DNA of 64,000 nucleotides from Thalassotalea nanhaiensis (GTDB taxonomy: Bacteria > Pseudomonadota > Gammaproteobacteria > Enterobacterales > Alteromonadaceae), in the NCBI RefSeq assembly GCF_031583575.1, contig NZ_CP134146.1, positions 2,790,001 to 2,854,000 of the forward strand. Reading direction: 5' to 3'. Below, piece by piece: positions 37,694-63,376 of this stretch; positions within the stretch are counted from its first letter, which is position 1, and each line of letters opens with the position of its first letter. Both the position numbers and the translations under genes were made by a program. Under the pieces are notes generated by a model. That model was not told the DNA's origin. It worked only from the letters and a program-made list of their open reading frames with translations, and made no database searches.

Positions 37694-38938
37694 TTATTTC
37701 CAAGATTTTTTGTATACGCGAACTAAGTTTTCACCCATTATTTTACGAATATCTTCGTTTGAGTAACCCATCTTCCATAGCTCGTCTATTACTGGTGCTA
37801 AATGCTTAGACATTTCAGCACAACCGGTTGCACCGCGTTTAAATGCATCAACCATGTAGCCGTTATCTGTGTACATATGTGAGTTTTCGATAGCAAAATC
37901 AGCAACTCGAGATACAGTCATCATATCGTCAGTACCAATACCTACGTGATCAACACCTAACACTTTTACTGCACCATCAACCATTTGTGCAAACTGTTTA
38001 GGAGTAATGTCGTCAGGCCATACGCCATCCATCATCCACTCAGTTGCAGTGATAGAAACCATACCACCCATTTCTTTCACCGTAAGTGCTTGCTCATCAG
38101 AGATCAAACGGTAACATGCAGCTAAACGGTGGAACGGGTCGCCTTTTTTATAGCCTTTTTCAGCCATACGCTTTTCCGTTTCAGTTAACGTTTCGTGTGG
38201 CTCACAACCGTAAGTTGACGCTAATGGCGAGTGAGAATAAACCGCAGGTACACCTGGGTGCTTCTCTTTCATGTAATCGGTAATGTCTTTAGTTGTTTGG
38301 TAGCCGTGATGTGACATATCTACAGTGATACCGTATTTAACCATCTCGTCGATAACTTCTTTACCATATTCAGTCAAACCTGAGTTGTCACCTGCAAGAG
38401 CAGATAAACCACCAACACCTGTTTCTTCAACGCCGTTGTATACAAGTTGCATTACACGGATACCGTCTTCGTGAAGCTCTTTTACACGACTTGCGTCACC
38501 TTCAAGCATCAAGGTTGTTTGAGCGTTCCACATTACAGCGTACTCGCCATTTTTGTGTGCTAATTCGAAGTCTTCAGGTTTGTCAACAAAACGAATTTTT
38601 GCATTTGACTCTTGTACAGCTTCGGTCCATTTGGCAAGTTCAGTTTTGTACTTAGCCCAAGTAGGTGTTGCTGGTGAAGTAAGTGTAATAGTTGCACCAG
38701 AAATACCACGAGCATGAGCTAAATCAATGTAATTAGTAACTTCACGGTTATCAGACCAACCAGTACCAAATGGCGATGCATAAAAATCAATTGCCATATT
38801 ATCTTTTAAAAACTGCTGTGCTTTTGGTGATGCAGTGTTGTGCCAGTCTTTGGTTTCAATCGATGCTGAGGCTGTACCAATGAATGATGCAGTAACAGCA
38901 ACGGCGATTAAAGATTTTAAAGAGTTACGTAATTTCAT
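37694..38938 (-). CDS. Exported M19 (renal dipeptidase) family protein lacking key metal ligands
   Basis: A 414-residue exported protein (signal peptide to about residue 25, TASA–SI) of the membrane-dipeptidase family M19. M19 enzymes cleave dipeptides, often with a C-terminal D-residue. The beta-metal histidine motifs are kept, VDMSHHG near residue 205 and VYSHSP near 234, as is GIGTD near 325. The N-terminal DxHxD is D51-F-Y-A-S55, so the His and Asp ligands are replaced. The bridging Glu region reads MWNAQTTLML without the Glu. It may use another metal arrangement or another chemistry. AGGAG precedes the ATG. Confidence 0.85.
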   Translation of the reverse strand: MKLRNSLKSLIAVAVTASFIGTASASIETKDWHNTASPKAQQFLKDNMAIDFYASPFGTGWSDNREVTNYIDLAHARGISGATITLTSPATPTWAKYKTELAKWTEAVQESNAKIRFVDKPEDFELAHKNGEYAVMWNAQTTLMLEGDASRVKELHEDGIRVMQLVYNGVEETGVGGLSALAGDNSGLTEYGKEVIDEMVKYGITVDMSHHGYQTTKDITDYMKEKHPGVPAVYSHSPLASTYGCEPHETLTETEKRMAEKGYKKGDPFHRLAACYRLISDEQALTVKEMGGMVSITATEWMMDGVWPDDITPKQFAQMVDGAVKVLGVDHVGIGTDDMMTVSRVADFAIENSHMYTDNGYMVDAFKRGATGCAEMSKHLAPVIDELWKMGYSNEDIRKIMGENLVRVYKKSWK

Positions 38939-39074
38939 ATCAAGCTCCTATAGCGTTTACGCAAAGTGATAATTAATGTTAATTCGGTTGATTTGTTAAC
39001 TTGGAGCTATTATGACAAGGATAAATCATACTATGTGTTACCCACGCAACAGATAGAGGTAAAAGACTGTAAAG

Positions 39075-39827
39075 TTAGCTTAACTTACTCGTTCCAAGCA
39101 AGTTAACTTCATTTAGAAAGGATTTTAATTGTCTTAAATCATTAACATATAAACCGCCACGGTAAGGTTCAACAATACCTTGTAGGGAGAATTCATTAAT
39201 TATGGTACTGGTATTGGAGCGATTTATACCGGCAAGATTGGCAATTTGTTGTTGGGTGATTTTAATTTTAATTGGCGAGGCATCATTTGGCGATTCGATA
39301 AATAAGTGATAATGACTGTTTTGCACTCGACAGATATCTAATAAGGTATAGGCAACTTTGACTATTGATGGTGTTGCTAAACTCACCAAGCATTTCTCAA
39401 ACATGGTGTCTGAGCGTACTGATTTTATGAAGAACAATAATTTAAACAACTCATCCGACTGGCTCATTAAATAATTAAGATGTGAAATTGGGATTTTTAA
39501 GTATTCAATATTTTGTAGAAACTCTCCTGTCATACCGCTTGGAAACTTAAAGTTCATAATGGGTGCGTAGCACATCCAATCAGATGGACCATAGAGTTTA
39601 CTTAAACTAAAGCCATCGGTAAGCAATGGTGCCGTTACCATTAAACTTCCCTTGAGCAAATAATAAATACCGTATTGTTCTTGATTATGTAAGTTAAACT
39701 CACTACCACTTATATGAGTTTTCTTAATAGCACCAGATAAAAAACTCTCTGTAAAGCTATCACTAAGATCACATGGCCAGTCAATTTGCGTTTGATATTG
39801 TTCTATTTTTTGCTGATTAAGGGGCAA
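39075..39827 (-). CDS. Crp/Fnr-family transcriptional regulator
   Basis: A 250-residue regulator with an N-terminal cyclic-nucleotide-binding-like beta-roll (about residues 15–130: GIYYLLKGSLMVTAPL). A dimer helix follows, then a C-terminal winged helix (ITQQQIANLAGINRSNTSTII, about 190–210). The roll lacks the Arg/Ser phosphate-binding cassette of true CRP and has no Fnr cysteine cluster, so the ligand is unknown. Translation starts at TTG (39825–39827), 8 bases after AGGA. It lies between the dipeptidase homologue and the deacylase-like lipoprotein. Confidence 0.85.
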   Translation of the reverse strand: MPLNQQKIEQYQTQIDWPCDLSDSFTESFLSGAIKKTHISGSEFNLHNQEQYGIYYLLKGSLMVTAPLLTDGFSLSKLYGPSDWMCYAPIMNFKFPSGMTGEFLQNIEYLKIPISHLNYLMSQSDELFKLLFFIKSVRSDTMFEKCLVSLATPSIVKVAYTLLDICRVQNSHYHLFIESPNDASPIKIKITQQQIANLAGINRSNTSTIINEFSLQGIVEPYRGGLYVNDLRQLKSFLNEVNLLGTSKLS

Positions 39828-39894
39828 GGTTTTAATCCTGATGCTTAGTTATTATATATATTTAACTTTATTCGCTATTTAACCTAAGAACAAT

Positions 39895-39943: not shown

Positions 39944-41629
39944 CTACTTATTCTCGTTCAGAGTTTCGGCTCTTAATGGCGTAGTTTCAATCAAGTTCTG
40001 CGCTTTCCATGCTTCTTCTGTGATCTCTTCATAACGCCCTTTCTCTTCTACAGGGAATCGGATCGGCTGACCTGCATGGACATCTTTTTGCACTTTAGAG
40101 TCTTTAACGACAATAGATCCGTTAACAAGTACATAAGGAATACCTGTCGATGGCAGTCCGTTGCTACCGGATTTAAACGTTGCATGTTCAGTCACATTTT
40201 CAGCATCAATTAACACAATATCAGCCACCATGCCCTCTTGCATTCTGCCACGCTCTTGCATTGCCTTTAAGCCGGTGTCACCCATAAACTTTGCAGGCCA
40301 GTAGCTTAATTGACTTAACGTATGCATTAAGGGTACTCCTTCTTCACGAGCAATCCTTAGAGTTACGGCATGCGTGCCTGCTGCTCTTGGATGACCCGCG
40401 TAGTCCTCATAGGAATCATCCCAGTCAAGAAATTCGCCTTTGCTATTCAATCCCGGCATGCCATCACCAGCAACAATAAAGCCTTCAACTTTTGTCCATT
40501 CTGGTAGCCATTTTTTACGAGGCGGGCTGTAAGCAACTAACGTTCTGCCAGGTTCATCTTTAACAAATTTTAAGAACTCTTCTTTAGTCACAAATTTATC
40601 TAATTGCGGATCATAAATAGTTTCTTCATACTTAAAATTCATAAGGTCTTGCCAAATAGGTGGCTGCACAATGGCCGCGCCATAATTACCAGATCCAGCT
40701 ATCCAAGGGTAATAGGTTGCCCAAACATTATAACCTTGCTCGCGGGCTTGGCTTAACAATTCTTGAGTTTCCCACCAACCAAAGTCATTATCGTGATGGA
40801 TCTCAAGTGGAGCATTTAGTGCCATCGCATTGGCAATTATTTCTTTTGCTCCAATAGGACCTTCCGTTGGCGGTGTCGCACTTGGATGAAAGCGGTGATG
40901 TACAGCCGTTACACGGCCATATTGGCCAGCTAATTTTTGCGTAGTGTACATTTCATAACTTACAATTGCTTTACCAGCATAACCAATAAGGGAGCCTATA
41001 CCTAAAGCACCCTGACGCAATTCCTCATCAAGAATGGCATGTACCTGATTTATTTGTTCATAGCTTGACTTATCATTAGCCCAGCCTTCATGACCATCTT
41101 TGCCCGACTCGCCTCTATGCTTGCTTAGGGTATATGGCATTGAAACATCTGGGCCAGTTAGATCCATCTCAGGATCATGAATACGCATACGTGCATATTC
41201 TTGCCCAGCTACTGCGCCAAAGTTCGCTTGAGTGTTACCTTCACGTTTAGCATACCACTCGGGGATATTTAACACGCCAACTTCAAAATCCATTTGCGTG
41301 GTAACACCGTCACGTAAGTTAACTTTTATTCCCCAAGGATCTAAGCCATGTTGCTCGTAATCAATAAAACCAGCAGTAACGACATGTCCGCTGGCATCAA
41401 TAACCTCATCACCTGAAATGTCTTGTTCAGTAATCGCCATTATACGACCATCTTTTATGCCTACGTTACGCACCCCATCAAAGTTAGTTTCAGGGTCCAT
41501 AACGCGGCCATTGTTAATCACCACGTCATAACTTACATTAGCTAGATTTACAGTTGATACATCACTTTCTGTTTGACTGCAGGCAGTAATAGTAGCTAAA
41601 AAACTTAGCGTGATTAATTTATTTTTCAT
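39944..41629 (-). CDS. Amidohydrolase lipoprotein, N-acyl-D-amino-acid deacylase type
   Basis: A 561-residue lipoprotein: the lipobox ITAC places the lipidated cysteine at C17. The amidohydrolase barrel resembles D-aminoacylase and N-acyl-D-glutamate deacylase, which free D-amino acids from N-acyl forms. Supporting stretches are VVTAGFID, LRDGVTTQMDFEVG, LGIGSLIGYAG, TAVHHRFHPS, LEIHHDND and MVADIVLID near the C terminus. The first metal motif is E91-Q-H93 where HxH is usual. It lies 126 bp downstream of the dadA-like gene on the same strand, which supports a D-amino-acid role. Confidence 0.82.
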   Translation of the reverse strand: MKNKLITLSFLATITACSQTESDVSTVNLANVSYDVVINNGRVMDPETNFDGVRNVGIKDGRIMAITEQDISGDEVIDASGHVVTAGFIDYEQHGLDPWGIKVNLRDGVTTQMDFEVGVLNIPEWYAKREGNTQANFGAVAGQEYARMRIHDPEMDLTGPDVSMPYTLSKHRGESGKDGHEGWANDKSSYEQINQVHAILDEELRQGALGIGSLIGYAGKAIVSYEMYTTQKLAGQYGRVTAVHHRFHPSATPPTEGPIGAKEIIANAMALNAPLEIHHDNDFGWWETQELLSQAREQGYNVWATYYPWIAGSGNYGAAIVQPPIWQDLMNFKYEETIYDPQLDKFVTKEEFLKFVKDEPGRTLVAYSPPRKKWLPEWTKVEGFIVAGDGMPGLNSKGEFLDWDDSYEDYAGHPRAAGTHAVTLRIAREEGVPLMHTLSQLSYWPAKFMGDTGLKAMQERGRMQEGMVADIVLIDAENVTEHATFKSGSNGLPSTGIPYVLVNGSIVVKDSKVQKDVHAGQPIRFPVEEKGRYEEITEEAWKAQNLIETTPLRAETLNENK

Positions 41630-41755: not shown

Positions 41756-43021
41756 TTAAAACCGACAAATGGAAAACGGTGATATATCAAAGCGTGTGGA
41801 TTTTTTAAAAATAGTATCAGCTAATAAACGTCCGCAGGCTGCAGATGTTGTCCACCCTTGCGCCCCTTGACCAGTATTAATGAATAAGCCGTCGACTTTT
41901 GTTTTTCCTAAAATAGCTATACCATCACAGCTCATAGGCCTAAAACCGGCCCAAGGATTTAATTGGTCGCGATCCATGTTTTGAGCAAAATCGGGAAAAA
42001 CAGATTCAACCAAGCCAATTAAATTATCAATACGGTCTTGCGATATTTCAGGGTCAAAACCAGCAAACTCGGCTGTACCAGCAACTCTAAGTGTATTACC
42101 TAGCGGGTTAATACCCGCGTGTAAATTCATATCGGCAATGAGATGTTTAGGTTTGTTATCCCAACCATTCATAGGTATAGACAAAGAATAGCCTTTCGCC
42201 GGCTTTACTGGAACTTTAATGCCTAACGGCGCGAATAAGCTTGAGGCTTTTGCCCCGGTTGCGACAACAACCTTATCAGCTTGCATGCTTTGTCTATTTT
42301 TATTCATTTCTACATTAAACAACGTTGCCTGTTTGGTGATACTTGATACTGGCGAATTAAATAAAAACCTAACACCTCGTTGTTTTAATACGTTCGTCAT
42401 TTGCTGACAAAAAATATGTGAATTACCCGCTTCATCGCCACTAAAAAGTAACGAACCAGATAATTTATCTTTAATGGGATTCAATGAAGGTTCGACATTA
42501 ATTGTTGCTTGAGCATCAAGCATTTTAAAATCAGCATTCCCCATTTCTTTGAATATTTCAGATAAGTGTAAATGTTCATCCAGTGAACGCTGGTCGCGGA
42601 AAATCTTTAACGTACCATTTGATGAATGCCTATAATCAATTTTTGTATCTTGGCGAATTTGCTCAAGTAGCTCTACTGAGTAATTAGCCAATTTACCCGT
42701 TTGTCTATTAGCGTTTAAATAGTCAATCATATTGGCGTACTTTAAAAACTGCAATCCCCAAACAGTTAAATCTGGTATTGCTTTTAAACGAAATAACAAT
42801 GGAGAATCTTTGCGGCCAAGGTATTTCAACATGACTTTTGCAATACCGGGAGCATTCCATGGATCAACAGCCGACGGGGTAATACCGCCACCGTTACCAA
42901 AGCTACACTCCATAGCAGCCCCTGAAGCGGCATCAATAACACTAACCTCAGCACCAAATTTATTTAAATAATAAGCAGTGGTGATTCCTTGCACCCCTGC
43001 GCCAATAACTACTATGTGCAT
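41756..43021 (-). CDS. dadA: D-amino acid dehydrogenase, DadA type
   Basis: A 421-residue FAD-dependent oxidoreductase of the DAO/DadA family (E. coli DadA 432). The FAD-binding GxGxxG motif is VIGAGVQGITTAYYL (residues 5–19). SFGNGGGITPSAVDPW resembles the DadA N-terminal substrate loop, and PWAGFRPMSCDGIAILG with NTGQGAQGWTTSAACGRLLAD is the C-terminal FAD/substrate signature. It oxidises D-amino acids to imino acids, which hydrolyse to 2-oxoacids and ammonia, feeding electrons to the respiratory chain. AAGAG precedes the ATG. The symbol is by similarity. Confidence 0.88.
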   Translation of the reverse strand: MHIVVIGAGVQGITTAYYLNKFGAEVSVIDAASGAAMECSFGNGGGITPSAVDPWNAPGIAKVMLKYLGRKDSPLLFRLKAIPDLTVWGLQFLKYANMIDYLNANRQTGKLANYSVELLEQIRQDTKIDYRHSSNGTLKIFRDQRSLDEHLHLSEIFKEMGNADFKMLDAQATINVEPSLNPIKDKLSGSLLFSGDEAGNSHIFCQQMTNVLKQRGVRFLFNSPVSSITKQATLFNVEMNKNRQSMQADKVVVATGAKASSLFAPLGIKVPVKPAKGYSLSIPMNGWDNKPKHLIADMNLHAGINPLGNTLRVAGTAEFAGFDPEISQDRIDNLIGLVESVFPDFAQNMDRDQLNPWAGFRPMSCDGIAILGKTKVDGLFINTGQGAQGWTTSAACGRLLADTIFKKSTRFDISPFSICRF

Positions 43022-43148: not shown

Positions 43149-45569
43149 CTACCCCTCAAAGTTATAGGTGAATTGAACATTAACAGTACGTCCTGGTTTA
43201 AACGTTGCAATATTGGTTCCTAAGAATGGTTGGTAACTGCCTAAGGTAATTTCATCATTTAAGTTTTTACCCAGTACGTTAACAGACCAAATGTTATCTA
43301 CTGATTTTATACCAATTCTTGCATTTACTTTTTCAAACGATTCTTGCAAGCCAACTTCATCGAGTGATGATTCAGTATAAAATTCATCGCTAAACTGCAC
43401 TGATGCGCCAGCTGTCAGAACTAAGCTGTCCGTAATTGGTGCTTCAATATCAGCATAAACCTTACCTGAATACTCTGGAGAAAAAGGCATAGGTTGGTCA
43501 GATTTATCCGATGAATTACATTCGCCGCCGGCATAAATTGCATCAAGCGTTTCACGTTGATTACAACTACCGTTTTTATAATCTGTGTATTCTGCATCAA
43601 GGTAAGCTAATGAACCGCCTAGCATTAACCAATCATTAAGCATCCAGCGAGCTTCTACTTCAATACCTTGCGATAAAGACTCACCAGCATTAGTTATTGT
43701 TGATGCCGCAGTTATTGGATCAAAGGTATTCACTTGTAAGTCATCATACTCCGTTCTAAATAGTGCAATATTCAAATCTGCGTCTCCTTCAAGTAATGAC
43801 ATCTTAGTACCGAACTCAAAGCCCAACGCTTGCTCATCATCATACTCAAACTGTTCAGGTGTAATATTTACAGAAGCTGCAAAGCCACCAGATTTTGCAC
43901 TTGTACCAGCTTTGGCATACATCATGACGTCATCATTAAAATCAAACTGATACATAACTTCTGGCATGAAATTTTCTGATGTTCTATCATCTTTTACAGG
44001 ATTAGTTGCGGTGAATGCAACGCCTCCTCCAAGTGGCATATCAGTCCACACCATTTCACCATTACCGCTGTCGAAACCAAACTGATTATTTACAGTGCGA
44101 TTATGTTCTTTATCTTCGGTGATGTAGCGAGCACCAAAAATTAAACGAGAGCTGTCGGTAATGTTCCATGTAGCATTTGCAAATACAGAGAAAGCATCTG
44201 TTTCTTGTTCAAAGGACGCTTCTACCCAGTCATATCCAGGAGGAATAATTGTAGGGTCGCCTAAGTATATTGCGCTTAGTACAGGATAGACTTCGGTTAA
44301 ATTAACGATGTTAGAATTTTGGTTTTCTAAATCTGATGATTGAAAATATGCGCCAACAATATAACTAAAGTTGTCATTTACTGGAGATGCTAAGCGTAGC
44401 TCGAACGAGTTTTGTTCATAAGCTTCATGTAAAATATTATCAATACCACCAGTATTTGGTGTCGGCGCCATACCTAGCAAAGCAGGAATGATGTTAAATG
44501 AATTACTATCAAGATCTAACGCATGAATAAAATCAAAATCTGAGTAACCAATATTTGCGGTTAAGGTGTAATCGTTAATATCGTAAGCAATTTCTACCGC
44601 TACATTTCTTGACTCTTGCTCTAAACCAGCAGATGAACGTGTATCAGACAATGTCGAAGTATTGCCAGTAGCACTTGGGTCAAAAAGATCTAACATTGAC
44701 GCATCATAATTTTCATCAAAATTAAATTCGCCACGACCTATTACATAACCTAAATCGTCTTTAATCGTGGTGAAGGTATTTTGTAAGTTACCATCAACCT
44801 CATATTGGGCATTTTCTATTTTAGCCGTGACGGTTAAATCTTCGCTTGCATTCCAAACCCCAGTAAGGCGAATCAATGTTTCATCTTTTTCACCAATAGT
44901 TGAACCGTCATAGGTATTTTGACCAAAGCCATCTGATGTTTTTTGTTGTACAGCTAAACGTAAACCTAATGTATCGGTCACGCCACCACCGGCAGCAACG
45001 CTCACAACAGTTTCTTCATACTCGGCTTCATGATCAACAGAAACACTCGCATTAAAGTCATCGTCTGCAGTATTTTTCTTAGATACAACACTAATTGCAC
45101 CAGCAGTTGAGTTCAAACCAAACAACACAGCTTGAGTACCGCGAAGTACCTCGACACGCTCTGTATCTAGAAATGGCGCACGATATTGACGTGAACGAGG
45201 CATATAAATACCATCGATAAACATACTTACCGATTGCTCTAATGAACGGTCAGTACCTGCTCCCATACCACGAATTGACACTTGCGTAGTGCCTAAGGTT
45301 TCAGAGATCATTAAATTTGGAATAGAGCCAGAAAGTTCGCCTAAATCTTCAATAGATTCGGCTTGTAATTGGTCTCCAGAAATAGCCTGGATAGACATTG
45401 GAATATCATTTATCGATTGTGTACGTTTTGTTGAAGTAACGGTAATATGTTCTAACTTACCCTCATCAATTTGTGCAGTTGTTTCAGCTGCATTAGCCGA
45501 ATAACTTAAAGCGACAGTGAATGACACAGCCCCTAAACAACGTGTTATTGTATTTAACTTAAGTTTCAT
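43149..45569 (-). CDS. TonB-dependent outer-membrane receptor 2
   Basis: An 806-residue receptor with a signal peptide (SYSANA–AE) and TonB-box-like LEHITVTS. The plug (IPMSIQAISGDQ, VEVLRGTQAVLFGLNSTAGAISVV) is followed by a barrel ending NVQFTYNFEG. It shares long identical blocks with receptor 1 (for example STKRTQ, RSRQYR, FGLNSTAGA), so the two arose by duplication and diverged mainly in the extracellular loops. AAGGGTGAG precedes the ATG. A perfect half of the 21-bp palindrome lies about 209 bp upstream, the same arrangement as receptor 1. Confidence 0.94.
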   Translation of the reverse strand: MKLKLNTITRCLGAVSFTVALSYSANAAETTAQIDEGKLEHITVTSTKRTQSINDIPMSIQAISGDQLQAESIEDLGELSGSIPNLMISETLGTTQVSIRGMGAGTDRSLEQSVSMFIDGIYMPRSRQYRAPFLDTERVEVLRGTQAVLFGLNSTAGAISVVSKKNTADDDFNASVSVDHEAEYEETVVSVAAGGGVTDTLGLRLAVQQKTSDGFGQNTYDGSTIGEKDETLIRLTGVWNASEDLTVTAKIENAQYEVDGNLQNTFTTIKDDLGYVIGRGEFNFDENYDASMLDLFDPSATGNTSTLSDTRSSAGLEQESRNVAVEIAYDINDYTLTANIGYSDFDFIHALDLDSNSFNIIPALLGMAPTPNTGGIDNILHEAYEQNSFELRLASPVNDNFSYIVGAYFQSSDLENQNSNIVNLTEVYPVLSAIYLGDPTIIPPGYDWVEASFEQETDAFSVFANATWNITDSSRLIFGARYITEDKEHNRTVNNQFGFDSGNGEMVWTDMPLGGGVAFTATNPVKDDRTSENFMPEVMYQFDFNDDVMMYAKAGTSAKSGGFAASVNITPEQFEYDDEQALGFEFGTKMSLLEGDADLNIALFRTEYDDLQVNTFDPITAASTITNAGESLSQGIEVEARWMLNDWLMLGGSLAYLDAEYTDYKNGSCNQRETLDAIYAGGECNSSDKSDQPMPFSPEYSGKVYADIEAPITDSLVLTAGASVQFSDEFYTESSLDEVGLQESFEKVNARIGIKSVDNIWSVNVLGKNLNDEITLGSYQPFLGTNIATFKPGRTVNVQFTYNFEG

Positions 45570-45934: not shown

Positions 45935-46942
45935 ATGCTAAATAAAAACTTCACTACATATCATGGCAATATTATTTCTCTATTTGAGATATTGAAATCC
46001 TATAATGTTGATGTTGAAGAACTTGCAAATGAATTGAATATAGATATTTCAAAGCTACGCAGTAAAAATATCCGCATGCAAGCGGAGCAATTTGATCAGC
46101 TTATTTCCTTAGCACTAGAAAAAACTGACGATGCAATGTTTCCTATTAACTTTGCTAATTATGTACACCCTACTACCTATCACGCATTGGGTATGTCGCT
46201 ATTAAGTAGCAGTACTTTGCGATCGTTTTGGCTCCGTCTTACACGATTCTTTTCGCTAATGACCACAATTAAAACTGTTGAACTGCACCTTGATGCTAAG
46301 CCGTCATTCATAAAGTTTAAACCTTTAGTTGTTCATCCTTCGACAACATTACATTTTCACTCAGCCGTTACGGTTGCAGTGTTAATCAAAATGATCAGAC
46401 AAATGTATCAGCCTAACTATTCACCAGTTAAAATTTCTTTAGTTGGTTCAGTTGCACCTGAGACTCTGGCACTTTATGAAAATCACTTTGGGTGTGAAGT
46501 AACTGCCGATGCACAAAGCACAATGATTTTTGTAGATAATGAAGAATTGGACTTTAATTTACCTGCTGCAAATACAGATCTTACCCGCCAGTTAGATTTA
46601 CTGGTGGTAAAGTATTTAGAAACCATTGAAAAAAACAGTTTAGCCACTAAAGTCGAAGAACTGCTGATCGCCTTATTACCTTCGGGGGAGTTTGATCGTG
46701 AAAAAATAGCCCAAGAACTGCACATGAGTCCGAGAACATTTCACGATAAGTTAAAAAAAGAACAGACCTCTTACCAACAAATTTTAGATGAGACTCGCCA
46801 GCAACTGGCCGATAAATACCTAAAAGAAATGGATATTCCTTTTAGTGAATTAACTTATTTACTTGGGTTTGCAGATTCCAGCAGTTTCTCTAGAGCGTTT
46901 AAGCGCTGGCATGGTGTTCCACCTAGTCAGTATGAGGTTTAA
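45935..46942 (+). CDS. AraC-family regulator (Arabinose_bd/OruR type)
   Basis: A 335-residue regulator. The N-terminal ligand domain (LFEILKSYNVDVEELANELNI…YHALGMSLLSSSTLRSF) is of the PF12625 type. The C-terminal DNA-binding domain ends ELTYLLGFADSSSFSRAFKRWHGVPPSQYEV. It belongs to the same class as the regulator at 28016–28999. It is divergent from TonB receptor 2, so it is a likely activator of that receptor and of downstream dadA. Confidence 0.9.
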   Translation: MLNKNFTTYHGNIISLFEILKSYNVDVEELANELNIDISKLRSKNIRMQAEQFDQLISLALEKTDDAMFPINFANYVHPTTYHALGMSLLSSSTLRSFWLRLTRFFSLMTTIKTVELHLDAKPSFIKFKPLVVHPSTTLHFHSAVTVAVLIKMIRQMYQPNYSPVKISLVGSVAPETLALYENHFGCEVTADAQSTMIFVDNEELDFNLPAANTDLTRQLDLLVVKYLETIEKNSLATKVEELLIALLPSGEFDREKIAQELHMSPRTFHDKLKKEQTSYQQILDETRQQLADKYLKEMDIPFSELTYLLGFADSSSFSRAFKRWHGVPPSQYEV

Positions 46943-52374: not shown

Positions 52375-52392
52375 GTGTAAGCTACCTAGCAA

Positions 52393-53146: not shown

Positions 53147-54304
53147 CTATTTGAAGCGCAGAATATCACTGCTAATACTGGTTATATCTTTTGCGCCAGA
53201 AACAATCATTGCTCGCTCTATTTCCGTTTTGAGCATATTAATCACAAACTCTATTCCTGGGCTGCCAGCCGCTGATAAACCATATACAAATGGTCTTGCT
53301 GTAGAACAAGCTGTCGCCCCCATCGCTAATGCTTTAACAACATCGGTGCCACGGCGAATACCACCATCGAGGATAATTTCAGCTTTACCAGATATTGCAT
53401 CAACAACTTCAGGTAATGCCGAAAACGTTGATGGGATTGCGTCATAGTTTCGTGCCCCCTGGTTTGAAACAAACACACCATCAGCGCCTATTTCAACAGC
53501 TTTTTTAGCATTATCTGCCGACATAATGCCTTTTATTGCCATTGGTCCGTCCCAGTTATCACGGATCCATGCCAGAGTGTCCCATGTTACCGGGCAAACC
53601 AAGTTATGAAACAGCCAGTTTTGATCTTTGCCTTGGTCAAAAAAGTTCTGAAAATTGGCAAAATCTGGTTTACTTTTCATATAGCCTAACACCCACTTAG
53701 GATGGGCTAACAGCGACAGTATGCTTCTTAATGGAAATGTTGGCGGAATACCAAAGCCGGTTCTGGCATCACGTTCGCGATTACCATGGACCGGATTGTC
53801 GATTGTCACAATAATCGCTTTATAGCCGCTGGCTTTAGCTCGCTCAAGCATATTTTTCATGATCGCTTTATCACGAGCAGGTTGTAACTGAAAGAACTTC
53901 GGCGCATCAGTTGTCACTGCTACATCTTCCATAGAGGTAGTAGCAAAGTTCGACATCGAATAAATACAACCAGTGTTAGCAGCAGCTCGAGCTGTGCCTT
54001 TTTCACCATCAGTATGCATCACCTTATGCGCGCCCCAAGGCGATAACAAAACAGGCGATGCAGATGTTTGCCCTAAAATAGTAGTGGTGAAATCTGCCGA
54101 TTCTAAGCCAGTGCCATAGTTTGGCATCAAGGTTACATCATCAAAGGTACGGGTGTTTTCTTTTAGCGTTTTTTCATCATCGCCACCACCATCTATGTAT
54201 TCTCTAATGGCTAATGGTAATGCTTTATGAGCAGCACTGCGTACATCGTTTATATTTAAACAATGTTGTAACCCGTTAGGAACCTTATGCTCGGAATGGC
54301 TCAT
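53147..54304 (-). CDS. FMN-dependent 2-hydroxyacid oxidase/dehydrogenase homologue with altered active site
   Basis: A 385-residue TIM-barrel flavoprotein of the glycolate oxidase/LldD family. FMN-binding elements are present: AIKG with K258, ILDGGIRRGTDVVKALAMGA and the phosphate loop. The N-terminal EYIDGGGDDE resembles the family signature. Two catalytic residues differ. The base histidine of SNHGAR is Q282 (SNQGAR, codon CAG), and the tyrosine of FFQLY is Q141 (FFQLQ). R285 and D169 are kept. It may not oxidise 2-hydroxyacids by the usual mechanism. Divergent from the MBL-fold gene. Confidence 0.88.
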   Translation of the reverse strand: MSHSEHKVPNGLQHCLNINDVRSAAHKALPLAIREYIDGGGDDEKTLKENTRTFDDVTLMPNYGTGLESADFTTTILGQTSASPVLLSPWGAHKVMHTDGEKGTARAAANTGCIYSMSNFATTSMEDVAVTTDAPKFFQLQPARDKAIMKNMLERAKASGYKAIIVTIDNPVHGNRERDARTGFGIPPTFPLRSILSLLAHPKWVLGYMKSKPDFANFQNFFDQGKDQNWLFHNLVCPVTWDTLAWIRDNWDGPMAIKGIMSADNAKKAVEIGADGVFVSNQGARNYDAIPSTFSALPEVVDAISGKAEIILDGGIRRGTDVVKALAMGATACSTARPFVYGLSAAGSPGIEFVINMLKTEIERAMIVSGAKDITSISSDILRFK

Positions 54305-54351: not shown

Positions 54352-54585
54352 ATTTGTTTATAACCGCACTTATCTGTTTAGGAATTGCAATTGAAAAACT
54401 GCCAAAAAAGATAAATTTTACGCAAAAATTAGCATGGGACTTGCTCAATCAACTAAAAATGATAAATAAGTCAAAACAAGCAAATAGCTTAATATCAGTT
54501 CAGATCCTCTTTGCTTACAACAGTATAGTGCTAATATGAGAAGAGTATTTTTACCAAGTCTATAATTTAGCGACGGAGTTGATTG

Positions 54586-55743
54586 ATGAGCATTGAAGAT
54601 TATAAAAAAGATGATGAGCACGGAAATTCTTGTCAAATAAATGACCATGATTCAATTTTAAATTATCCTTTTTCGATCCCTGAGCAATATCAAAAGCAAT
54701 TAATTTGTGACGATATTTATTGGTTTAGAGTACCTCTGCCGTTCAAGCTTGATCACATTAACTTGTATTTAATTAAAGATGGTGATGGTTGGTGTTTAGT
54801 TGATACGGGCATGGGCACAAACTACTCTAAACAGTTTTGGCAAACTTTATTTGAAAGCGCGCTTGAAGACAAACCGGTCAATAAAATAATTATCACTCAT
54901 AATCATCCAGATCACGTTGGCCTGGCGAGTTGGTTACAACAAAAGTATGACTGCCCGGTGTTAATCACTCAGCGTGAGTACGACATGATGGCCTATTTAT
55001 TCAGTATCAGCGGCAGTACACCACCTAAATACTATCTCGACTTTTTACTGCGCGCAGGTATGTCGCCTGAGTTTACCGAAAAAGTTGAGCAAGAACGTGA
55101 CGATGGCTTTGACAAAGCCGTTGATGGTTTACCGCGCAAATGTCAGTTTATTCGCCATGGTGATGTCATAGATATTGGCAAGCACCAATTTGAGATCATT
55201 GTTGGTAGCGGCCACTCACCTGCTCATGCAAGTTTATACTCTAAACAGCTGAATTTATTATTCTCTGGTGATCAAGTGATACCAGAAATCCCATCTATGG
55301 TGACCTTGTATCCGAAGAATCCTAAATTTAAAGATCATCGTAAGCAAAATCCATTAGGACGCTGGCTGAATGCCTTAAATGGTTTAAAGCAATTGCCCAG
55401 TGATACCTTAGTTTTACCATCACATTCAAAACCATTTATTGGGTTACATAAACGCATCGACGAAATTATAGAAAATCATTGTAAGTTATTAAATAAGCTC
55501 ATCGATTGTTTAGGTGATGAAAAAACAGTGAGCCAGGCAATAAAACCTATCTATAAACGTGAAGTTAAAGATAACATTTATGTAATGTTTGTCAGCGAGC
55601 TACTCGCTCACATTCAATTTTTGGAACAACTCGGCATAGTCGAACGTGAAGCAACTGACACTGTCGATCTGTTTAAAACCGTTAAGCAAGTTGACTTGTG
55701 TAAAGAGATTGGCCGCTTTTTAGAAGCACCTTGTTGCCAATAA
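54586..55743 (+). CDS. MBL-fold metallo-hydrolase
   Basis: A 385-residue hydrolase from the ATG at 54586–54588, seven bases after GGAG. The metallo-beta-lactamase fold metal motif HNHPDHVG is near residue 106. VGSGHSPAHASLY near 208 and FSGDQVI near 226 supply further ligands, and LPSHSKPF near 283 the last His. A C-terminal helical extension (SQAIKPIYKREVKDNIYVM…HIQFLEQLGIVERE) matches a group of thioesterase- or glyoxalase-II-like enzymes with a winged-helix-like tail. In this region it may hydrolyse an acyl-CoA or lactone. The end carries a CCQ terminus. Confidence 0.85.
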   Translation: MSIEDYKKDDEHGNSCQINDHDSILNYPFSIPEQYQKQLICDDIYWFRVPLPFKLDHINLYLIKDGDGWCLVDTGMGTNYSKQFWQTLFESALEDKPVNKIIITHNHPDHVGLASWLQQKYDCPVLITQREYDMMAYLFSISGSTPPKYYLDFLLRAGMSPEFTEKVEQERDDGFDKAVDGLPRKCQFIRHGDVIDIGKHQFEIIVGSGHSPAHASLYSKQLNLLFSGDQVIPEIPSMVTLYPKNPKFKDHRKQNPLGRWLNALNGLKQLPSDTLVLPSHSKPFIGLHKRIDEIIENHCKLLNKLIDCLGDEKTVSQAIKPIYKREVKDNIYVMFVSELLAHIQFLEQLGIVEREATDTVDLFKTVKQVDLCKEIGRFLEAPCCQ

Positions 55744-56738: not shown

Positions 56739-56812
56739 ATTTCTAGATTGGTCGAAATATATAAAAACAACTTGCTCAAGTCAATATATTTCTAGTAATA
56801 TCGAAATATATA
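56739..56812. promoter_or_regulatory. Duplicated ArsR-type operator between permease and regulator
   Basis: Two 25-bp near-copies, 56739–56763 and 56788–56812, share ATTTCTAG-N5-TCGAAATATATA. Each contains inverted ATTTC…GAAAT arms. Their starts are 49 bp apart, near five helical turns. They lie over the divergent promoters of the permease and the ArsR-family gene. Confidence 0.7.
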
Positions 56813-56830
56813 TAAATAAAAAGGTTATCT

Positions 56831-57188: not shown

Positions 57189-59543
57189 CTATTTAGGCTG
57201 TTTAAAAACTATCACCTCGGGCAATTCACCTTGATATTTTTCAACCTCAACTAAACAGCTGTGCGCGCTACACCCCTGCGCCAGTGTTGATGTACCTGTA
57301 TCTTTGGTCAACACATTAGGGTTGCCATGAGCTTCAAGCTTTTTACCATTTACCGTTTGTGGATCGTACCACGCGCCGGTTGGTAACTCGATTACCCCAT
57401 CACGAATATCATTTGATATTTCAATACCCGCTAAACATGCGCCTCGGTCGTTAAACAAGCGAATAATATCGCCATCTTGAATATTTCGTTTATTGGCTTC
57501 TGCGTTATTCATACGTGCACGTTCACGGTTTTTTATCTTATTTTCACGACTTGTTCGTGCGTGATCAAATTGACTGTGCAAACGAGTTTTCGGTTGATTC
57601 GATACAAGATGCAATGGGTATTTAGCCGCGCGTTCGCCGCCTAACCATTCAACATGTTGATACCATTTGGCATGACCATGGCAATCATCATAATTAAAGC
57701 TGGCAATTTTTTCTGAAAACAATTCAATTTTGCCCGATGGGGTTCTGAGTTTATATTTATCAGGATCACGTCTAAATCGCTCAAGGGTGAATTCAATATC
57801 ATCGAGTTGATCGCCCACATAAAACTGTTCACCTTGCCAAAAGTCATTAAACTCAGGCAATTTCACATCAATTTTCGCAGCGTTTGTACGGGTAGTATTA
57901 TACAGTTGCTCAACCCACTGCATTTCAGTTTTACCACCGGTAAACTCATCTTTAAAGCCCAAACGCTGTGCTAAACCTGAAAAGATATCAAAGTCTGAAC
58001 GTGACTGCTGATAGGGTTTTACTGCTTGACGCATAGGGGAAATAAACGCATCGTAACTGCTGCCGCCGAGATCATTTCGCTCTAACATTGTGGTGCACGG
58101 AAATACGATATCTGCATGTCTGGCTGTTGCTGTCCAAAATGCTTCATTAACAATAATCGTATCGGGTTTTGACCAGGCTTTAGCAAGTTCATCAAGGTCT
58201 TGGTGGTGGTGAAACGGGTTACCGCCCGCCCAATATATCAATTTAATATCAGGGTAAGTTAAATCCATACCATTGTATTGGTATTTTCCACCAGGGTTAT
58301 TCAGCATATCGGTATGACGAGCAACAGGAATAAACTTTTTATCACCTAACGCTGGTCGCTCCCCTATTTCCATGCCAAATGCGCCCATTTTATAGGTTGG
58401 TACTTTACGACCACCAAAGCCCATATTATGGATACAACCATATCCATAGCCTACACCCGCGCCAACCTTTCCAATATGGCCAAGCATGGCCGCAAGGGTG
58501 GTAAACATCCAATAGGTTTGCTCACCAAACTCTTGTCGCTGCAGTGACCAACTTATGCTTAACACGCTAGGTGCATTACCAAGCTCTATAGCTAAATCAA
58601 TAATGTATTGTTCGCTTACATCACAAATATTTGCTGCCCAAGCAGCGTCTTTAACTTGGCCATCACTGTCACCAAGTAAATACGGCAAAAACTGTTCAAA
58701 ACCTACCGTATATATATCTAGAAACTCAGTATCATGTAAGTTATTAATCACTAGGGTATGAGCAAGACCAAGCATTAGCGCAACATCGGTGTTTGGTCGT
58801 AATGCCAACCATTTAGCCCCAACCTCATCAATAACATCGTCACGAATTGGGCTAATATTCACCACGTTTACGTCAGCGTCTTTGAGCTGTTTTAACTGTT
58901 CAACGGCGCTGTGCGCACCAATACCGCCGGCATTAACTTGTGAATTTTTAATTGCGGCGCCGCCAAATAATACGAAGTTCTTAGAGTGCTTGGCAATTTC
59001 TTCAGGGCTTGGCGCTTCACGCACCAATAATAAAAATGGGATACCAGTAATGTGATTCATGATCACTTCAGCTGCTGCAGATGAGTAAGTATTTAATGAA
59101 TCTACGTAACCTCCGCACTTTGCTAAAAAGCGGTGAATTTGACTTTGTGCATGATGGAATCGCCCTGCACTCGCCCAGCCATAAGAACTGCCATAAATTG
59201 CATCTTTACCATAATTTGTTTTGGTGTCATCAATGGCTTTTGCCGCTAAATCTAACGCAACCTCCCAACTAACAGGTACAAATTTTTCTTTACCCCTGCC
59301 TTCACCATTACTGTTAATACCATGGGTTAAATACCCTTCACGAACCATAGGTTGTGGTATTCTCGCGCCATTATCTAAGGCATCATTTAGTGATTGACCT
59401 ATTGGCGTAGGCTCTTTATCTACAGCATAATTATTTATTGAAAGGATTTGTTCGCCATCAGACTCAACTAAGTAGTTGCCCCAGTGCGAACAGGTAGGTG
59501 TTAACGATGTTGGTGTTGAACTATTGCTCTTTTTGGCTGACAT
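57189..59543 (-). CDS. Molybdopterin oxidoreductase, biotin-sulfoxide-reductase (BisC) type
   Basis: A 784-residue molybdoenzyme of the DMSO-reductase superfamily, closest in layout to E. coli BisC (777). CSHWGNYLVESDG, GSYGWASAGRFHHA, WSLQRQEFGEQTYWM, YWAGGNPFHHHQD and FWTATARHADIVFP are conserved. The Mo-ligand serine is in NTYSSAAAEVIM (near residue 158). No twin-arginine signal and no 4Fe-4S motif are present, so it is cytoplasmic with only bis-MGD. Substrates could be S-oxides or N-oxides, for example methionine sulfoxide. An intergenic TTATC…GATAA motif lies upstream. Confidence 0.9.
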   Translation of the reverse strand: MSAKKSNSSTPTSLTPTCSHWGNYLVESDGEQILSINNYAVDKEPTPIGQSLNDALDNGARIPQPMVREGYLTHGINSNGEGRGKEKFVPVSWEVALDLAAKAIDDTKTNYGKDAIYGSSYGWASAGRFHHAQSQIHRFLAKCGGYVDSLNTYSSAAAEVIMNHITGIPFLLLVREAPSPEEIAKHSKNFVLFGGAAIKNSQVNAGGIGAHSAVEQLKQLKDADVNVVNISPIRDDVIDEVGAKWLALRPNTDVALMLGLAHTLVINNLHDTEFLDIYTVGFEQFLPYLLGDSDGQVKDAAWAANICDVSEQYIIDLAIELGNAPSVLSISWSLQRQEFGEQTYWMFTTLAAMLGHIGKVGAGVGYGYGCIHNMGFGGRKVPTYKMGAFGMEIGERPALGDKKFIPVARHTDMLNNPGGKYQYNGMDLTYPDIKLIYWAGGNPFHHHQDLDELAKAWSKPDTIIVNEAFWTATARHADIVFPCTTMLERNDLGGSSYDAFISPMRQAVKPYQQSRSDFDIFSGLAQRLGFKDEFTGGKTEMQWVEQLYNTTRTNAAKIDVKLPEFNDFWQGEQFYVGDQLDDIEFTLERFRRDPDKYKLRTPSGKIELFSEKIASFNYDDCHGHAKWYQHVEWLGGERAAKYPLHLVSNQPKTRLHSQFDHARTSRENKIKNRERARMNNAEANKRNIQDGDIIRLFNDRGACLAGIEISNDIRDGVIELPTGAWYDPQTVNGKKLEAHGNPNVLTKDTGTSTLAQGCSAHSCLVEVEKYQGELPEVIVFKQPK

Positions 59544-59718: not shown

Positions 59719-60180
59719 TTATAAAGGCCAATAGCGAACAATGAAGTTACCAAGTGTCACTGGTTGATCGTCACCCTCTACGGTCCAGGTAAAGTCATAA
59801 TGTACAGCAATGCCTTCTTTACGCTGTTCAATTTTATCGACATTGAATTTAAGCACGATTGAATCACCAGCTTTTACCGGTTTTAAAATGCGAAACCTAT
59901 CGGTGCCTAAAAACAGCGCCTTCATGTTATGCAGCTCTACATGGTCAAAGTAAACCGAATGCAGCAATGACATAGTGTACATCCCCGGCGCAACAACGGC
60001 CCCGAACGGTGACGCCTTACAACGCTCTTCATCAAAATGAAACCAATCCATTTGATTCACACTACGACAAAAATCTTGGATCATAGTGGCGGTTACATGC
60101 AGTGGCCTTGAGGTAAATAGCTCTTTACCTTCATAAGGCGTTAACGCATCTATACCATTTAATTGAATTTTATTACTCAC
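59719..60180 (-). CDS. MaoC/NodN-like hot-dog protein with substituted catalytic Asp
   Basis: A 153-residue single hot-dog protein of the MaoC dehydratase superfamily. The hydratase motif region reads VNQMDWFHFDEERCKASPFG. H48 is in place, but the position five residues before it, normally the catalytic Asp of DxNPIH, is Q43; a nearby D45 might substitute. Starts at GTG (60178–60180), six bases after AAGGA. It lies 15 bp downstream of the permease and is certainly co-transcribed. It may be a hydratase with altered chemistry or a non-catalytic binding protein. Confidence 0.82.
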   Translation of the reverse strand: MSNKIQLNGIDALTPYEGKELFTSRPLHVTATMIQDFCRSVNQMDWFHFDEERCKASPFGAVVAPGMYTMSLLHSVYFDHVELHNMKALFLGTDRFRILKPVKAGDSIVLKFNVDKIEQRKEGIAVHYDFTWTVEGDDQPVTLGNFIVRYWPL

Positions 60181-61583: not shown

Positions 61584-61622
61584 TGCGCTTTTATAGCAAA
61601 GGATCAAAGAGTTCAGTAAATT

Positions 61623-62042
61623 ATGACTACCAAAACTTATATTGGCGATACTATTATCAAGCAGTTACGTCTAACGATAGAGGATATTGCCAATGGTGCA
61701 AGTGCGCTGGGTGATACTAACCCAATTCACTTTAACCATGATGAAGCAATTAAAGCAGGTTACTCTGGAATTATAGCCAGTGGCGCTCATACATCTGGTT
61801 TATGTGGTGGTGCCCTAACCCAAAAATTTCAACATTCGGGCCCATTTATGGGGCTGGATTGTAGTTATCGATTCCATAAAGCTGTACTACCTAATGAACA
61901 GTTAACAATCACTTGGACAACAACTCTCATCGAGCATAAAACTAAATTAAAAGGTCATCTGGCATATTTTGAAGGCCAAATGACTGACAGTTCTGACAAA
62001 ATATTAATTTCAGCAACCATGAAAGTATTGTTGTTAGATTAA
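61623..62042 (+). CDS. MaoC-family (R)-enoyl-CoA-hydratase-like protein
   Basis: A 139-residue hot-dog hydratase with the intact catalytic pair D31 and H36 in DTNPIHFNHDEAIKAGYSG, followed by IASGAHTSGL. The length fits R-specific enoyl-CoA hydratase (PhaJ about 134). It should hydrate an unsaturated acyl-CoA to the (R)-3-hydroxyacyl-CoA. It is followed 59 bp downstream by the MFS gene. Two of the shared palindromes lie upstream. Confidence 0.88.
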   Translation: MTTKTYIGDTIIKQLRLTIEDIANGASALGDTNPIHFNHDEAIKAGYSGIIASGAHTSGLCGGALTQKFQHSGPFMGLDCSYRFHKAVLPNEQLTITWTTTLIEHKTKLKGHLAYFEGQMTDSSDKILISATMKVLLLD

Positions 62043-62101
62043 AATGTTTCAAAATTAATACGTAAACATCACTTCATTTATAAAAACAAGAGTATTGTTT
62101 T

Positions 62102-63376
62102 ATGTTTAACTTTTCTTTTTTTACCCATTGGCAACAGCGTTACAATATTACAATTTTGTGTACGGTTGCGTTATTTATTTGCTTTATCGACAGGGTTAAT
62201 ATTTCTGTCGCTATACTGCCGATGCAAGCTGAATTTGGTTGGAATGATACGGTAAAAGGCATGGTTTTAGCCTCATTCTTTATTGGCTATATGCTGATGC
62301 AAATTGTTGGCGGAGTGTTAGCAAGTAAGTTTGGTGGCAAAGTAGTTCTTGGCAGCGCCGTGATCTTTTGGTCGATCTTCACAATATTAACGCCGATCTT
62401 AGCAATGGCGTCATTACCTATGCTAATACTAGGGCGAATATTGCTTGGGCTAGGAGAAGGCGCCAGCGTACCGTCAGCATATTCTTTATTTAAACATTGG
62501 GTACCAAAATCTGAGCAAGCAAGAACAATAACTATCTTTTCCAGTGGTGCGCCGTTAGGCACTATTGTAGGTCTTGTCGCCTCCGGCTGGATTATTAACC
62601 ATTATGATTGGGCCATGGTATTTTATATTTTTGGTTCGTTAGGCTTTATCTGGATTATATTTTGGCTATTATTCGCCTATTCAAAACCCAAAGATAATCC
62701 TAATATCTGCCAACAAGAACTCGCGTTAATTTATTCAGAAAAAGAAGAAATTAAACAGCATGAGCCTGTGCCATGGAAACAGTTTTTCAACAAAGCTCCA
62801 GTACTAGCATTATTTTATACCGCATTTACCACACAATGGACGCTGTATTTATTTCTTGCTTGGTTACCAAGCTATTTTGCCGATGTTCATGGTTTTAGCA
62901 TTACCCAAGCCGGCCTTTCGTCAGCGGCGCCTTGGTTAACCATGATAATTATGATGAATGTTGCAGGTATCGTTTCTGACAAACTTATTAAATCAGGAAA
63001 GTCAGCCGGTTTTACGCGCAAGCTAGTTCAAAGTATCGGCTTATTTGGCTCGGCTTTATTTTTATTTTTGTCGCTGTATGTTACTGAGCCAATGATGGCC
63101 GTTATTTGTACCTGTGGCGCTCTTGGAGCATTATCCTTTTGTTATTCAGGATACACGGTTAATCCCATGGACATTGCTCCAAAACACTCAGAATCATTGT
63201 TTGGTGTGGTAAATACTGCAGCGACCTTACCAGGTATATTGGCAGTTGCAGTTACGGGCTGGCTAGTTGATGTAACCAATAGTTATAATTCGGCGTTTAT
63301 TCTAGCCGCGGTGATCAGTATTAGTGGTGCCTTAGTGTTTATTAAGTACGGTACGGGTAAAAAGATAATCGATTAA
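62102..63376 (+). CDS. MFS transporter, anion:cation symporter (ACS) type
   Basis: A 424-residue 12-helix major facilitator. The N terminus FICFIDRVNISVAILPMQ and the loop motif VGGVLASKFGGKVVLG place it in the ACS family (SLC17-like), which imports organic anions such as hexuronates, 4-hydroxyphenylacetate, tartrate or sialate. LILGRILLGLGEGASVPSAY and PLGTIVGLVASGWI are conserved helix motifs. It probably shares a transcript with the MaoC gene upstream and could import the pathway's acidic substrate. Confidence 0.9.
   Translation: MFNFSFFTHWQQRYNITILCTVALFICFIDRVNISVAILPMQAEFGWNDTVKGMVLASFFIGYMLMQIVGGVLASKFGGKVVLGSAVIFWSIFTILTPILAMASLPMLILGRILLGLGEGASVPSAYSLFKHWVPKSEQARTITIFSSGAPLGTIVGLVASGWIINHYDWAMVFYIFGSLGFIWIIFWLLFAYSKPKDNPNICQQELALIYSEKEEIKQHEPVPWKQFFNKAPVLALFYTAFTTQWTLYLFLAWLPSYFADVHGFSITQAGLSSAAPWLTMIIMMNVAGIVSDKLIKSGKSAGFTRKLVQSIGLFGSALFLFLSLYVTEPMMAVICTCGALGALSFCYSGYTVNPMDIAPKHSESLFGVVNTAATLPGILAVAVTGWLVDVTNSYNSAFILAAVISISGALVFIKYGTGKKIID

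What the first reader, a model, noticed from the sequence alone, without database searches (positions are those of the whole stretch)
37694..63376. Possible N-acyl/peptide-bound D-amino acid uptake and catabolism cluster
Seen: a dipeptidase homologue, an N-acyl-D-amino-acid-deacylase-type lipoprotein, a DadA-type dehydrogenase, RidA plus a fused 2-oxoacid:ferredoxin oxidoreductase, an AMACR-type racemase, two MaoC proteins, TonB receptors and transporters within 26 kb. Known: DadA gives imino acids, RidA hydrolyses imines to 2-oxoacids, and indolepyruvate-type oxidoreductases turn 2-oxoacids into acyl-CoA. Inference: a continuous route from an outer-membrane-imported N-acyl or peptidyl D-amino acid to acyl-CoA. 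An AMACR would matter for chiral products such as 2-methylbutyryl-CoA from D-isoleucine/alloisoleucine. I do not know this combination as a described system.
Basis: partly seen in the sequence, partly recalled or inferred. Interest (0 to 1): 0.75.

Follow-up and report, generated by a model that had tools for sequence, protein, structure and literature searches.

The report
Amino-acid amide catabolic island, substrate unknown

Summary
The listed genes are present and mostly named correctly. The cluster is larger: it runs to about 81.4 kb in window coordinates, past the window end, where PaaA/C/D-like oxygenase subunits, acyl-CoA dehydrogenases and a prolidase-like amidohydrolase lie. In the genus, 5 of 15 genomes carry the FMN core gene, and the same 5 carry PaaA. 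DadA occurs in 4 of those 5 and in 0 of the other 10; G611 has the core without the receptor-DadA-deacylase unit. The AMACR call holds. The deacylase and M19 homologues lack recalled metal ligands, so D-specificity and dipeptidase activity are unproven. An overlooked FMN enzyme has Gln for the catalytic His in 11 of 11 cluster copies and His in 24 of 24 others read. RidA lies within 12 kb of 10 of the 11, against 0 of 14 others checked. Best reading: amide-linked amino acids are imported, cut and oxidised through imine, 2-oxoacid and acyl-CoA to Paa-like oxygenation. Substrate unknown; the isoleucine endpoint is weakly supported.

The parts
37694..38938 (-). secreted M19-peptidase-family homologue with altered metal site (no HxD; Gln in the recalled Glu position)
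   Evidence: PF01244 E 1.9e-43, best stretch starts at profile position 42; nearest solved 2i5g; motif table. Ligand motif recalled; no canonical M19 was in the table as a positive control.
39075..39827 (-). Crp-like regulator inside the feeder unit
   Evidence: PF13545; 54-88% in G612, G615, G603
39944..41629 (-). amidohydrolase lipoprotein of the PRK09061 subfamily (deacylase type)
   Evidence: NF006560 343 bits, cut-off 340; nearest solved N-acyl-D-glutamate deacylase 3gip E 1.7e-11; lipobox read by eye
41756..43021 (-). DadA-type FAD amino-acid dehydrogenase
   Evidence: NF001933 381.7 bits, cut-off 383; genus distribution; homologues in G623 and G624 clusters
43149..45569 (-). TonB-dependent receptor of the feeder unit
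   Evidence: PF00593/PF07715; 59-96% in three genus relatives
45935..46942 (+). AraC-type regulator divergent from the receptor
   Evidence: PF12625 and HTH_18; 61-98% in three relatives
47385..48548 (-). alpha-methylacyl-CoA racemase-type enzyme
   Evidence: nearest solved AMACR/MCR E 1.6e-92, next kind (YfdE) 2.4e-32
48889..52392 (-). fused indolepyruvate-type 2-oxoacid:ferredoxin oxidoreductase
   Evidence: NF009589 1541 bits, cut-off 816; cluster clade 100/100
52393..52887 (-). Rid-family protein, recalled catalytic Arg kept, 0 bp from the IOR open frame
   Evidence: PF14588 30.4 bits, below cut-off 35; nearest solved 3d01, PA0814, ACIAD3089; alignment with E. coli RidA; gap
53147..54304 (-). 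FMN alpha-hydroxyacid dehydrogenase family protein with Gln for the catalytic His and for the active-site Tyr
   Evidence: PF01070; alignment to glycolate oxidase 1gox; 11 of 11 cluster copies
54583..55743 (+). metallo-beta-lactamase-fold hydrolase
   Evidence: PF00753; 71-98% in four relatives
57189..59543 (-). BisC/DMSO-reductase-type molybdoenzyme, no Tat signal seen by eye
   Evidence: TIGR00509 926.7 bits, cut-off 1017.55; nearest solved 1eu1 E 1.1e-180; cluster clade 100/100
59719..60180 (-). MaoC-type hydratase 1, weakly PaaZ-like
   Evidence: PF01575; TIGR02278 E 3.5e-7, far below cut-off; 48-64% in L107, L108, L109, L111
60196..61326 (-). membrane transporter, YkvI-like (name recalled)
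   Evidence: no Pfam or NCBIfam hit; homologues in L111, G623, G624 clusters
61623..62042 (+). MaoC-type hydratase 2
   Evidence: PF01575; 65-98% in four relatives
62102..63376 (+). MFS transporter, galactonate/phosphate-cotransporter type
   Evidence: PF07690; TIGR00893/TIGR00894 below cut-off; in 3 of 4 genus relatives
63464..64000 (-). outer-membrane porin-like protein, continues past the window end
   Evidence: homologue at 52-96% in all four genus relatives; porin name from my reading, the related protein at 80188 hits PF04966 OprB

Best explanation
This is about the first three fifths of a catabolic island of some 45 kb (window 36.9 kb to about 81.4 kb). It most likely feeds on amide-linked amino acids, N-acyl or peptidyl. 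A TonB receptor imports the compound, and periplasmic amidohydrolases (the PRK09061 lipoprotein, the prolidase-like protein at 72.9 kb, perhaps the M19-like protein) cut it. DadA and, by inference, the altered FMN enzyme oxidise the freed amino acid to an imine. RidA hydrolyses the imine and IOR converts the 2-oxoacid to an acyl-CoA. AMACR adjusts its stereochemistry, a Paa-like multicomponent oxygenase oxidises it, and MaoC, enoyl-CoA hydratase and acyl-CoA dehydrogenases finish the job. Shown: gene content, co-occurrence, and which active-site residues are kept or changed. Inferred: every reaction, their order, and the substrate class. Best guess for the acyl-CoA: an arylacetyl-type or other ring-bearing one.
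For: Conserved as a set in 5 of 15 genus genomes, and in varying part (3 to 16 of 23 families at 40% or more) in four gammaproteobacterial MAGs. Cluster copies of the FMN enzyme, IOR and BisC-type enzyme form clades with 100/100 support. In the Lysobacterales MAG the FMN and DadA open frames overlap by 4 bases. RidA lies within 12 kb of 10 of 11 Gln-type FMN genes and of 0 of 14 His-type genes checked. The Haliea MAG holds a 70% identical deacylase on another contig, beside MFS and AraC homologues. DadA releases an imine for a Rid protein in P. aeruginosa (PMC9714295, abstract). PaaA keeps the recalled diiron-type residues when aligned with E. coli PaaA.
Against: G611 has the core without receptor, DadA, deacylase, Crp, M19 and prolidase-like genes, so the core has another entry point there. 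The prolidase-like gene is also missing in G603, and G615 has only a 37% homologue. L111 and L109 show no DadA or IOR in the stretch read. The FMN enzyme has no shown activity. Deacylase copies of the cluster are not an exclusive clade, and DadA is unresolved. The oxygenase scores far below the Paa cut-offs (93 against 280 bits), so it may act on something other than an arylacetyl-CoA. The roles of the BisC, MBL and nitronate-monooxygenase-like genes are unexplained. No shared operator was found.
Confidence: 0.42

Rival explanations
1. The amidohydrolases release a ring-bearing acid from an N-acyl amino acid conjugate, and the core (AMP ligase in the MAGs, AMACR, Paa-like oxygenase, MaoC, acyl-CoA dehydrogenases) degrades the acid part. 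DadA, the FMN enzyme and RidA remove nitrogen from it or dispose of the amino acid.
For: AMP-ligase, nitronate-monooxygenase-like, thiolase and DUF35 genes (named by my reading of the sequences) sit in MAG clusters. The core exists without DadA and deacylase in G611. AMACR is typical of 2-branched acyl-CoA (recalled).
Against: IOR and RidA are in all five genus genomes with the core and in G623 and G624, and point to a 2-oxoacid from an amino acid.
Confidence: 0.27
2. One reading: D-amino acids, notably D-isoleucine or alloisoleucine, go by DadA, RidA and IOR to 2-methylbutyryl-CoA, and AMACR epimerises it.
For: AMACR, IOR, RidA and DadA are real and together.
Against: Does not explain the conserved Paa-like oxygenase, the BisC-type enzyme, the FMN enzyme or the prolidase-like protein.
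Confidence: 0.1
3. Two unrelated catabolic units share an integration hotspot; the feeder unit (receptor, DadA, deacylase, Crp, M19) has nothing to do with the core.
For: The feeder is missing in G611; G615 carries large extra insertions, and the flanking receptor TBDT1 is variable. Deacylase copies are not exclusive to clusters.
Against: DadA (E 1e-50 or better) is found only in genus genomes that have the core (4 of 5 against 0 of 10). DadA and deacylase lie with IOR, RidA and AMACR on single contigs in two distant MAGs.
Confidence: 0.17

Closest known systems
Pseudomonas dad locus (DadR-DadA-DadX-DadY)
   Same: FAD D-amino-acid dehydrogenase plus a Rid-family imine deaminase in one locus (PMC9714295, abstract)
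   Different: Here with receptor, amidohydrolases, IOR, AMACR and an oxygenase; no DadX-type racemase among the genes named here
Phenylacetate (paa) pathway, PaaABCDE and PaaZ
   Same: PaaA-, PaaC- and PaaD-type subunits (PaaD split in two; a small PaaB-like frame by my reading only), MaoC, enoyl-CoA hydratase, acyl-CoA dehydrogenases
   Different: PaaA 93 bits against cut-off 280, PaaC 29 against 133; no PaaE-type reductase or PaaZ aldehyde dehydrogenase recognised among the open frames of the island (not searched genome-wide)
FMN-dependent alpha-hydroxyacid oxidases and dehydrogenases (glycolate oxidase, mandelate and lactate dehydrogenase)
   Same: Full-length family match; the recalled Lys and Arg columns stay
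   Different: Catalytic His and active-site Tyr positions are both Gln in the cluster copies
D-aminoacylase / N-acyl-D-glutamate deacylase
   Same: Amidohydrolase fold by sequence; invariant His and Asp columns (H94, H244, H279, D389)
   Different: No Cys at the recalled ligand position (Val, an invariant Glu one residue earlier); the first His of HxH is Glu
BisC / DMSO reductase
   Same: Nearest solved structure DMSO reductase 1eu1; recalled YGW and Ser positions kept
   Different: No Tat signal seen, in a catabolic cluster, below the family cut-off

Membership tests
alpha-methylacyl-CoA racemase (AMACR) | closer to AMACR than to class III CoA-transferases, with the His, Asp and Glu positions of MCR (residues recalled) | tested here: met
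   E 1.6e-92 against 2.4e-32; AGHD.NYI, GD.GGG and E..FY aligned
FMN alpha-hydroxyacid dehydrogenase, as a hydroxyacid oxidiser | catalytic His (glycolate oxidase H254, recalled) | tested here: not met
   SNHGAR is SNQGAR; Gln in 11 of 11 cluster copies, His in 24 of 24 other copies read
1,2-phenylacetyl-CoA epoxidase (Paa) | NCBIfam equivalog cut-offs for PaaA and PaaC | tested here: not met
   93 against 280 and 29 against 133 bits
1,2-phenylacetyl-CoA epoxidase-like oxygenases (PF05138) | Pfam cut-off; E, ExxH, D, ExxH pattern in PaaA (recalled) | tested here: met
   116.1 and 57.6 bits against cut-off 28.5; alignment
D-aminoacylase / N-acyl-D-amino-acid deacylase | Cys metal ligand (recalled) | tested here: not met
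   Cys aligns with Val; an invariant Glu116 stands one residue earlier in 9 aligned sequences
M19 membrane dipeptidase | HxD and Glu metal ligands (recalled) | tested here: not met
   IDFYASP and WNAQTT in the window protein; no row of the M19-like table shows HxD there. No canonical M19 was aligned as a positive control.
RidA imine deaminase | catalytic Arg (E. coli R105, recalled) | tested here: met
   CRSA aligned with ARSC
D-amino-acid dehydrogenase DadA | NCBIfam PRK00711 score | tested here: inconclusive
   381.7 bits against cut-off 383; stereospecificity not testable here
indolepyruvate-type fused oxidoreductase | NCBIfam subfamily cut-off | tested here: met
   1541 against 816 bits; substrate not testable here
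D-amino acid catabolic system | growth on, or induction by, D-amino acids | not testable with these tools
   no expression or growth data

The most novel reading that the evidence does not exclude
The FMN enzyme is a new amine-oxidising branch of the alpha-hydroxyacid dehydrogenase family. It acts as the L-side partner of DadA, so that both enantiomers of an amide-released amino acid go by RidA and IOR to an acyl-CoA that a new Paa-like oxygenase opens: a complete undescribed pathway for amide-bound D- and L-amino acids in marine gammaproteobacteria.
Probability: 0.17. Interest if true: 0.75.

Novelty: new variant of a known kind. Interest (0 to 1): 0.5.

Why it matters
D-amino acids are counted among refractory marine organic matter (abstracts listed). 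A conserved cluster that joins uptake of amide-linked amino acids to an imine step, a ferredoxin-linked 2-oxoacid step and a divergent ring-type oxygenase would name genes to follow in ocean data. The FMN subfamily that lost its catalytic base and sits by RidA gives one directly testable enzyme: does it oxidise amines?

Tried and rejected
Rejected: FMN enzyme as an ordinary L-lactate-type dehydrogenase (His to Gln). CoA-transferase reading of the CaiB-family protein. Canonical phenylacetate pathway. Led nowhere: a single-protein scan of genome contigs with the FMN protein confirmed no relative. Plasmid searches with DadA, IOR, BisC-type, PaaA and FMN proteins gave homologues under 60% identity in every record; I looked at the neighbourhoods of six records only, among which a Bosea plasmid has a Rid-family gene right after its BisC homologue. 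A search for shared inverted repeats or words between 21 intergenic stretches found only A/T-rich words. PADLOC gave one weak MBL hit. Structure prediction never ran because the machine was busy. Paper searches for the combination and its parts listed no paper whose title or shown abstract describes it; listings were cut (12 of 8,856; 10 of 28), and only the held open library was searched. I considered breakdown of D-residue peptides of the nodularin kind and dropped it because I tested no marker for it.

Limits of the counts. The His/Gln count takes the 14 non-cluster copies plus ten more read (three class copies, G526, G408 and G362, that had dropped out of the frame list, and seven genus paralogues). 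The RidA count was made only for the 14; their stretches run from 5 to 70 kb, and three (G496, G389, G289) are too short to cover 12 kb on both sides. The Rid search used E. coli RidA and YjgH, a Bosea Rid and the window Rid, so very distant Rid proteins could be missed. For L110 the RidA count uses the fuller contig G624:C5; for L107 no RidA was found on its own contig stretch. The L110 FMN frame lacks its N-terminal part. One row of the DadA tree (L002) was the wrong frame and forms a long branch. The MAG clusters were found through the FMN enzyme, so its presence there is by construction. Names of genes in the MAG and genus loci beyond those matched to window proteins are my reading of the sequences.


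Full report
What is there. The window is part of one 4.3-Mb contig. Gene names were checked with Pfam and NCBIfam.

The cluster is larger. Pfam PF05138 has two matches in the whole genome, 10.6 and 12.3 kb beyond the window end. The stretch between holds, in window coordinates: two AraC-type regulators (64936, 66073), an outer-membrane protein (67201), LysR (68404), enoyl-CoA hydratase (69497), two acyl-CoA dehydrogenases (70378, 71577), a prolidase-like amidohydrolase (72897), PaaC (74363), a PaaD zinc-ribbon protein (75310), a small PaaB-like protein (75519; my reading, no family hit), PaaD (75797), PaaA (76111), YeiH (77581), a third acyl-CoA dehydrogenase (78831) and an OprB porin (80188). 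Searches support the Paa, amidohydrolase, dehydrogenase, hydratase and OprB names; the regulators and YeiH are my reading.

Distribution in the genus. The FMN gene at 71% or more is in 5 of 15 genus genomes, the own one included. A profile of the cluster PaaA finds the same 5 of 15. DadA at E 1e-50 or better is in 4 of 15, all among those 5. In G612 and G603 the order is largely as here, with a few genes gained, lost or moved. G615 has the set with insertions that include a second Gln-type FMN gene and a second, 33% identical DadA. In G611 the core stands directly beside the TetR gene, without receptor, DadA, deacylase, Crp, M19 or prolidase-like gene; G603 also lacks the prolidase-like gene. 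So the receptor-DadA-deacylase unit looks like an accessory feeder of a core pathway.

Outside the genus. In an order sample of 197 genomes, IOR at E 1e-100 or better was found in 4, the own one included, and the deacylase at E 1e-60 or better in 11, the own one included. In a class sample of 369, the cluster-type PaaA (E 1e-60 or better) was found in the own genome only. A genome-contig scan with an FMN alignment gave 5 loci in four MAGs. Their neighbourhoods hold PaaA 61-63%, PaaC, PaaD, MaoC1, RidA, IOR 56%, BisC-type 57-64%, AMACR 41-43%, acyl-CoA dehydrogenases and the prolidase-like gene in varying sets. Fuller contigs show for G623:C396 (SI034_bin39; 40.0 of 40.3 kb read): prolidase-like, AraC, deacylase 44%, receptor, BisC 64%, RidA 66%, IOR 56%, MaoC1, FMN, AMP ligase, PaaA, PaaD, PaaC, AMACR 41%, two acyl-CoA dehydrogenases, YkvI-like, nitronate-monooxygenase-like and DadA 42%; and for G624:C5 (Lysobacterales bin10o): AMP ligase, AMACR 46%, IOR 56%, RidA 53%, YkvI-like, receptor, prolidase-like, acyl-CoA dehydrogenase, deacylase 48%, M19-like, DadA 45% and FMN 49%. 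The Haliea MAG (G626) has a 70% identical deacylase on a 6-kb contig beside MFS and AraC homologues. Against the model, the L111 and L109 stretches show no DadA or IOR.

Controls. The same 23 queries were run over 35 loci chosen by a single homologue (14 by FMN, 8 by the BisC-type enzyme, 3 by IOR, 10 by the deacylase): none had more than one family at 40% or more. The cluster loci had 16 (G623), 9 (G624), 10 (L107), 8 (L111) and 3 (L109); in G623 and L107 one of these is a query taken from that very locus. The stretches differ in length.

Active sites. The CaiB-family protein is AMACR-like. RidA keeps the Arg. The BisC-type enzyme keeps the YGW and Ser positions of DMSO reductase. The FMN protein has Gln for the catalytic His in 11 of 11 cluster copies, and the active-site Tyr is Gln in the same 11. 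Of non-cluster copies, 24 of 24 read have His (14, ten more), and the 14 have Tyr. RidA lies within 12 kb of 9 of the 11 in the stretches first read and of 10 of 11 once the fuller contig of L110 is used; for the 14 others it is 0, three of them on short stretches. The deacylase has no Cys at the D-aminoacylase ligand position (Val, with an invariant Glu one residue earlier) and Glu for the first His of HxH. No M19-like protein in the table shows the HxD motif. Residue numbers and roles in the reference enzymes are recalled.

Trees. Cluster copies form clades with 100/100 support for the FMN enzyme, IOR and the BisC-type enzyme, among the rows I had. The deacylase copies do not form an exclusive clade, and DadA is unresolved. 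So the core is inherited as a set, the feeder less strictly.

Working model. Import by the TonB receptor; periplasmic cleavage; oxidation to an imine by DadA and, by inference, the FMN enzyme; RidA; IOR to acyl-CoA; AMACR; Paa-like oxygenation; MaoC, hydratase and acyl-CoA dehydrogenase steps. The DadA-Rid link has direct precedent (PMC9714295; I saw outline and abstract). The rest is inference. Of PMC12363236 I saw only seven passages; they do not mention deacylase, TonB or dipeptidase.

Verdict. Its chemistry is partly right: the D-specific and dipeptidase labels are unproven, and the 2-methylbutyryl endpoint is unlikely given the oxygenase.

Noticed in passing
window 34046-36394: The flanking TonB receptor is only 41-47% identical in the four genus relatives, whereas its neighbours GNAT and TetR are 66-91% and 72-98%: the receptor at the island edge seems exchanged often.
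   Followed up: partly
window 55808-57130: An ArsP permease with a divergent ArsR-like frame (56831-57130, my reading) moves about: beside TetR in G603, beside the FMN and BisC genes here and in G615, not found in the G611 and G612 stretches.
   Followed up: partly
own genome G000:C1 2394001-2444000 (L042-L044): A second hotspot holds four M19-like genes, a deacylase (47%), a His-type FMN gene, an MFS (37%), AraC homologues and DAO-family matches.
   Followed up: partly
window 60196-61326: The YkvI-like transporter is only 70-71% identical in G612 and G615, where the core genes from AMACR to MFS are 89-98%, which suggests exchange of the transporter.
   Followed up: no
L160, L161, L162: An Agrobacterium, a Thermus and a haloarchaeal plasmid carry a PaaA-PaaD-small protein-PaaC block, PaaA 37-39% identical, with CoA-pathway genes nearby: a wider Paa-like oxygenase group.
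   Followed up: partly
window 31513-31928: Four tandem tRNA-Val genes with the same anticodon lie upstream of the island.
   Followed up: no
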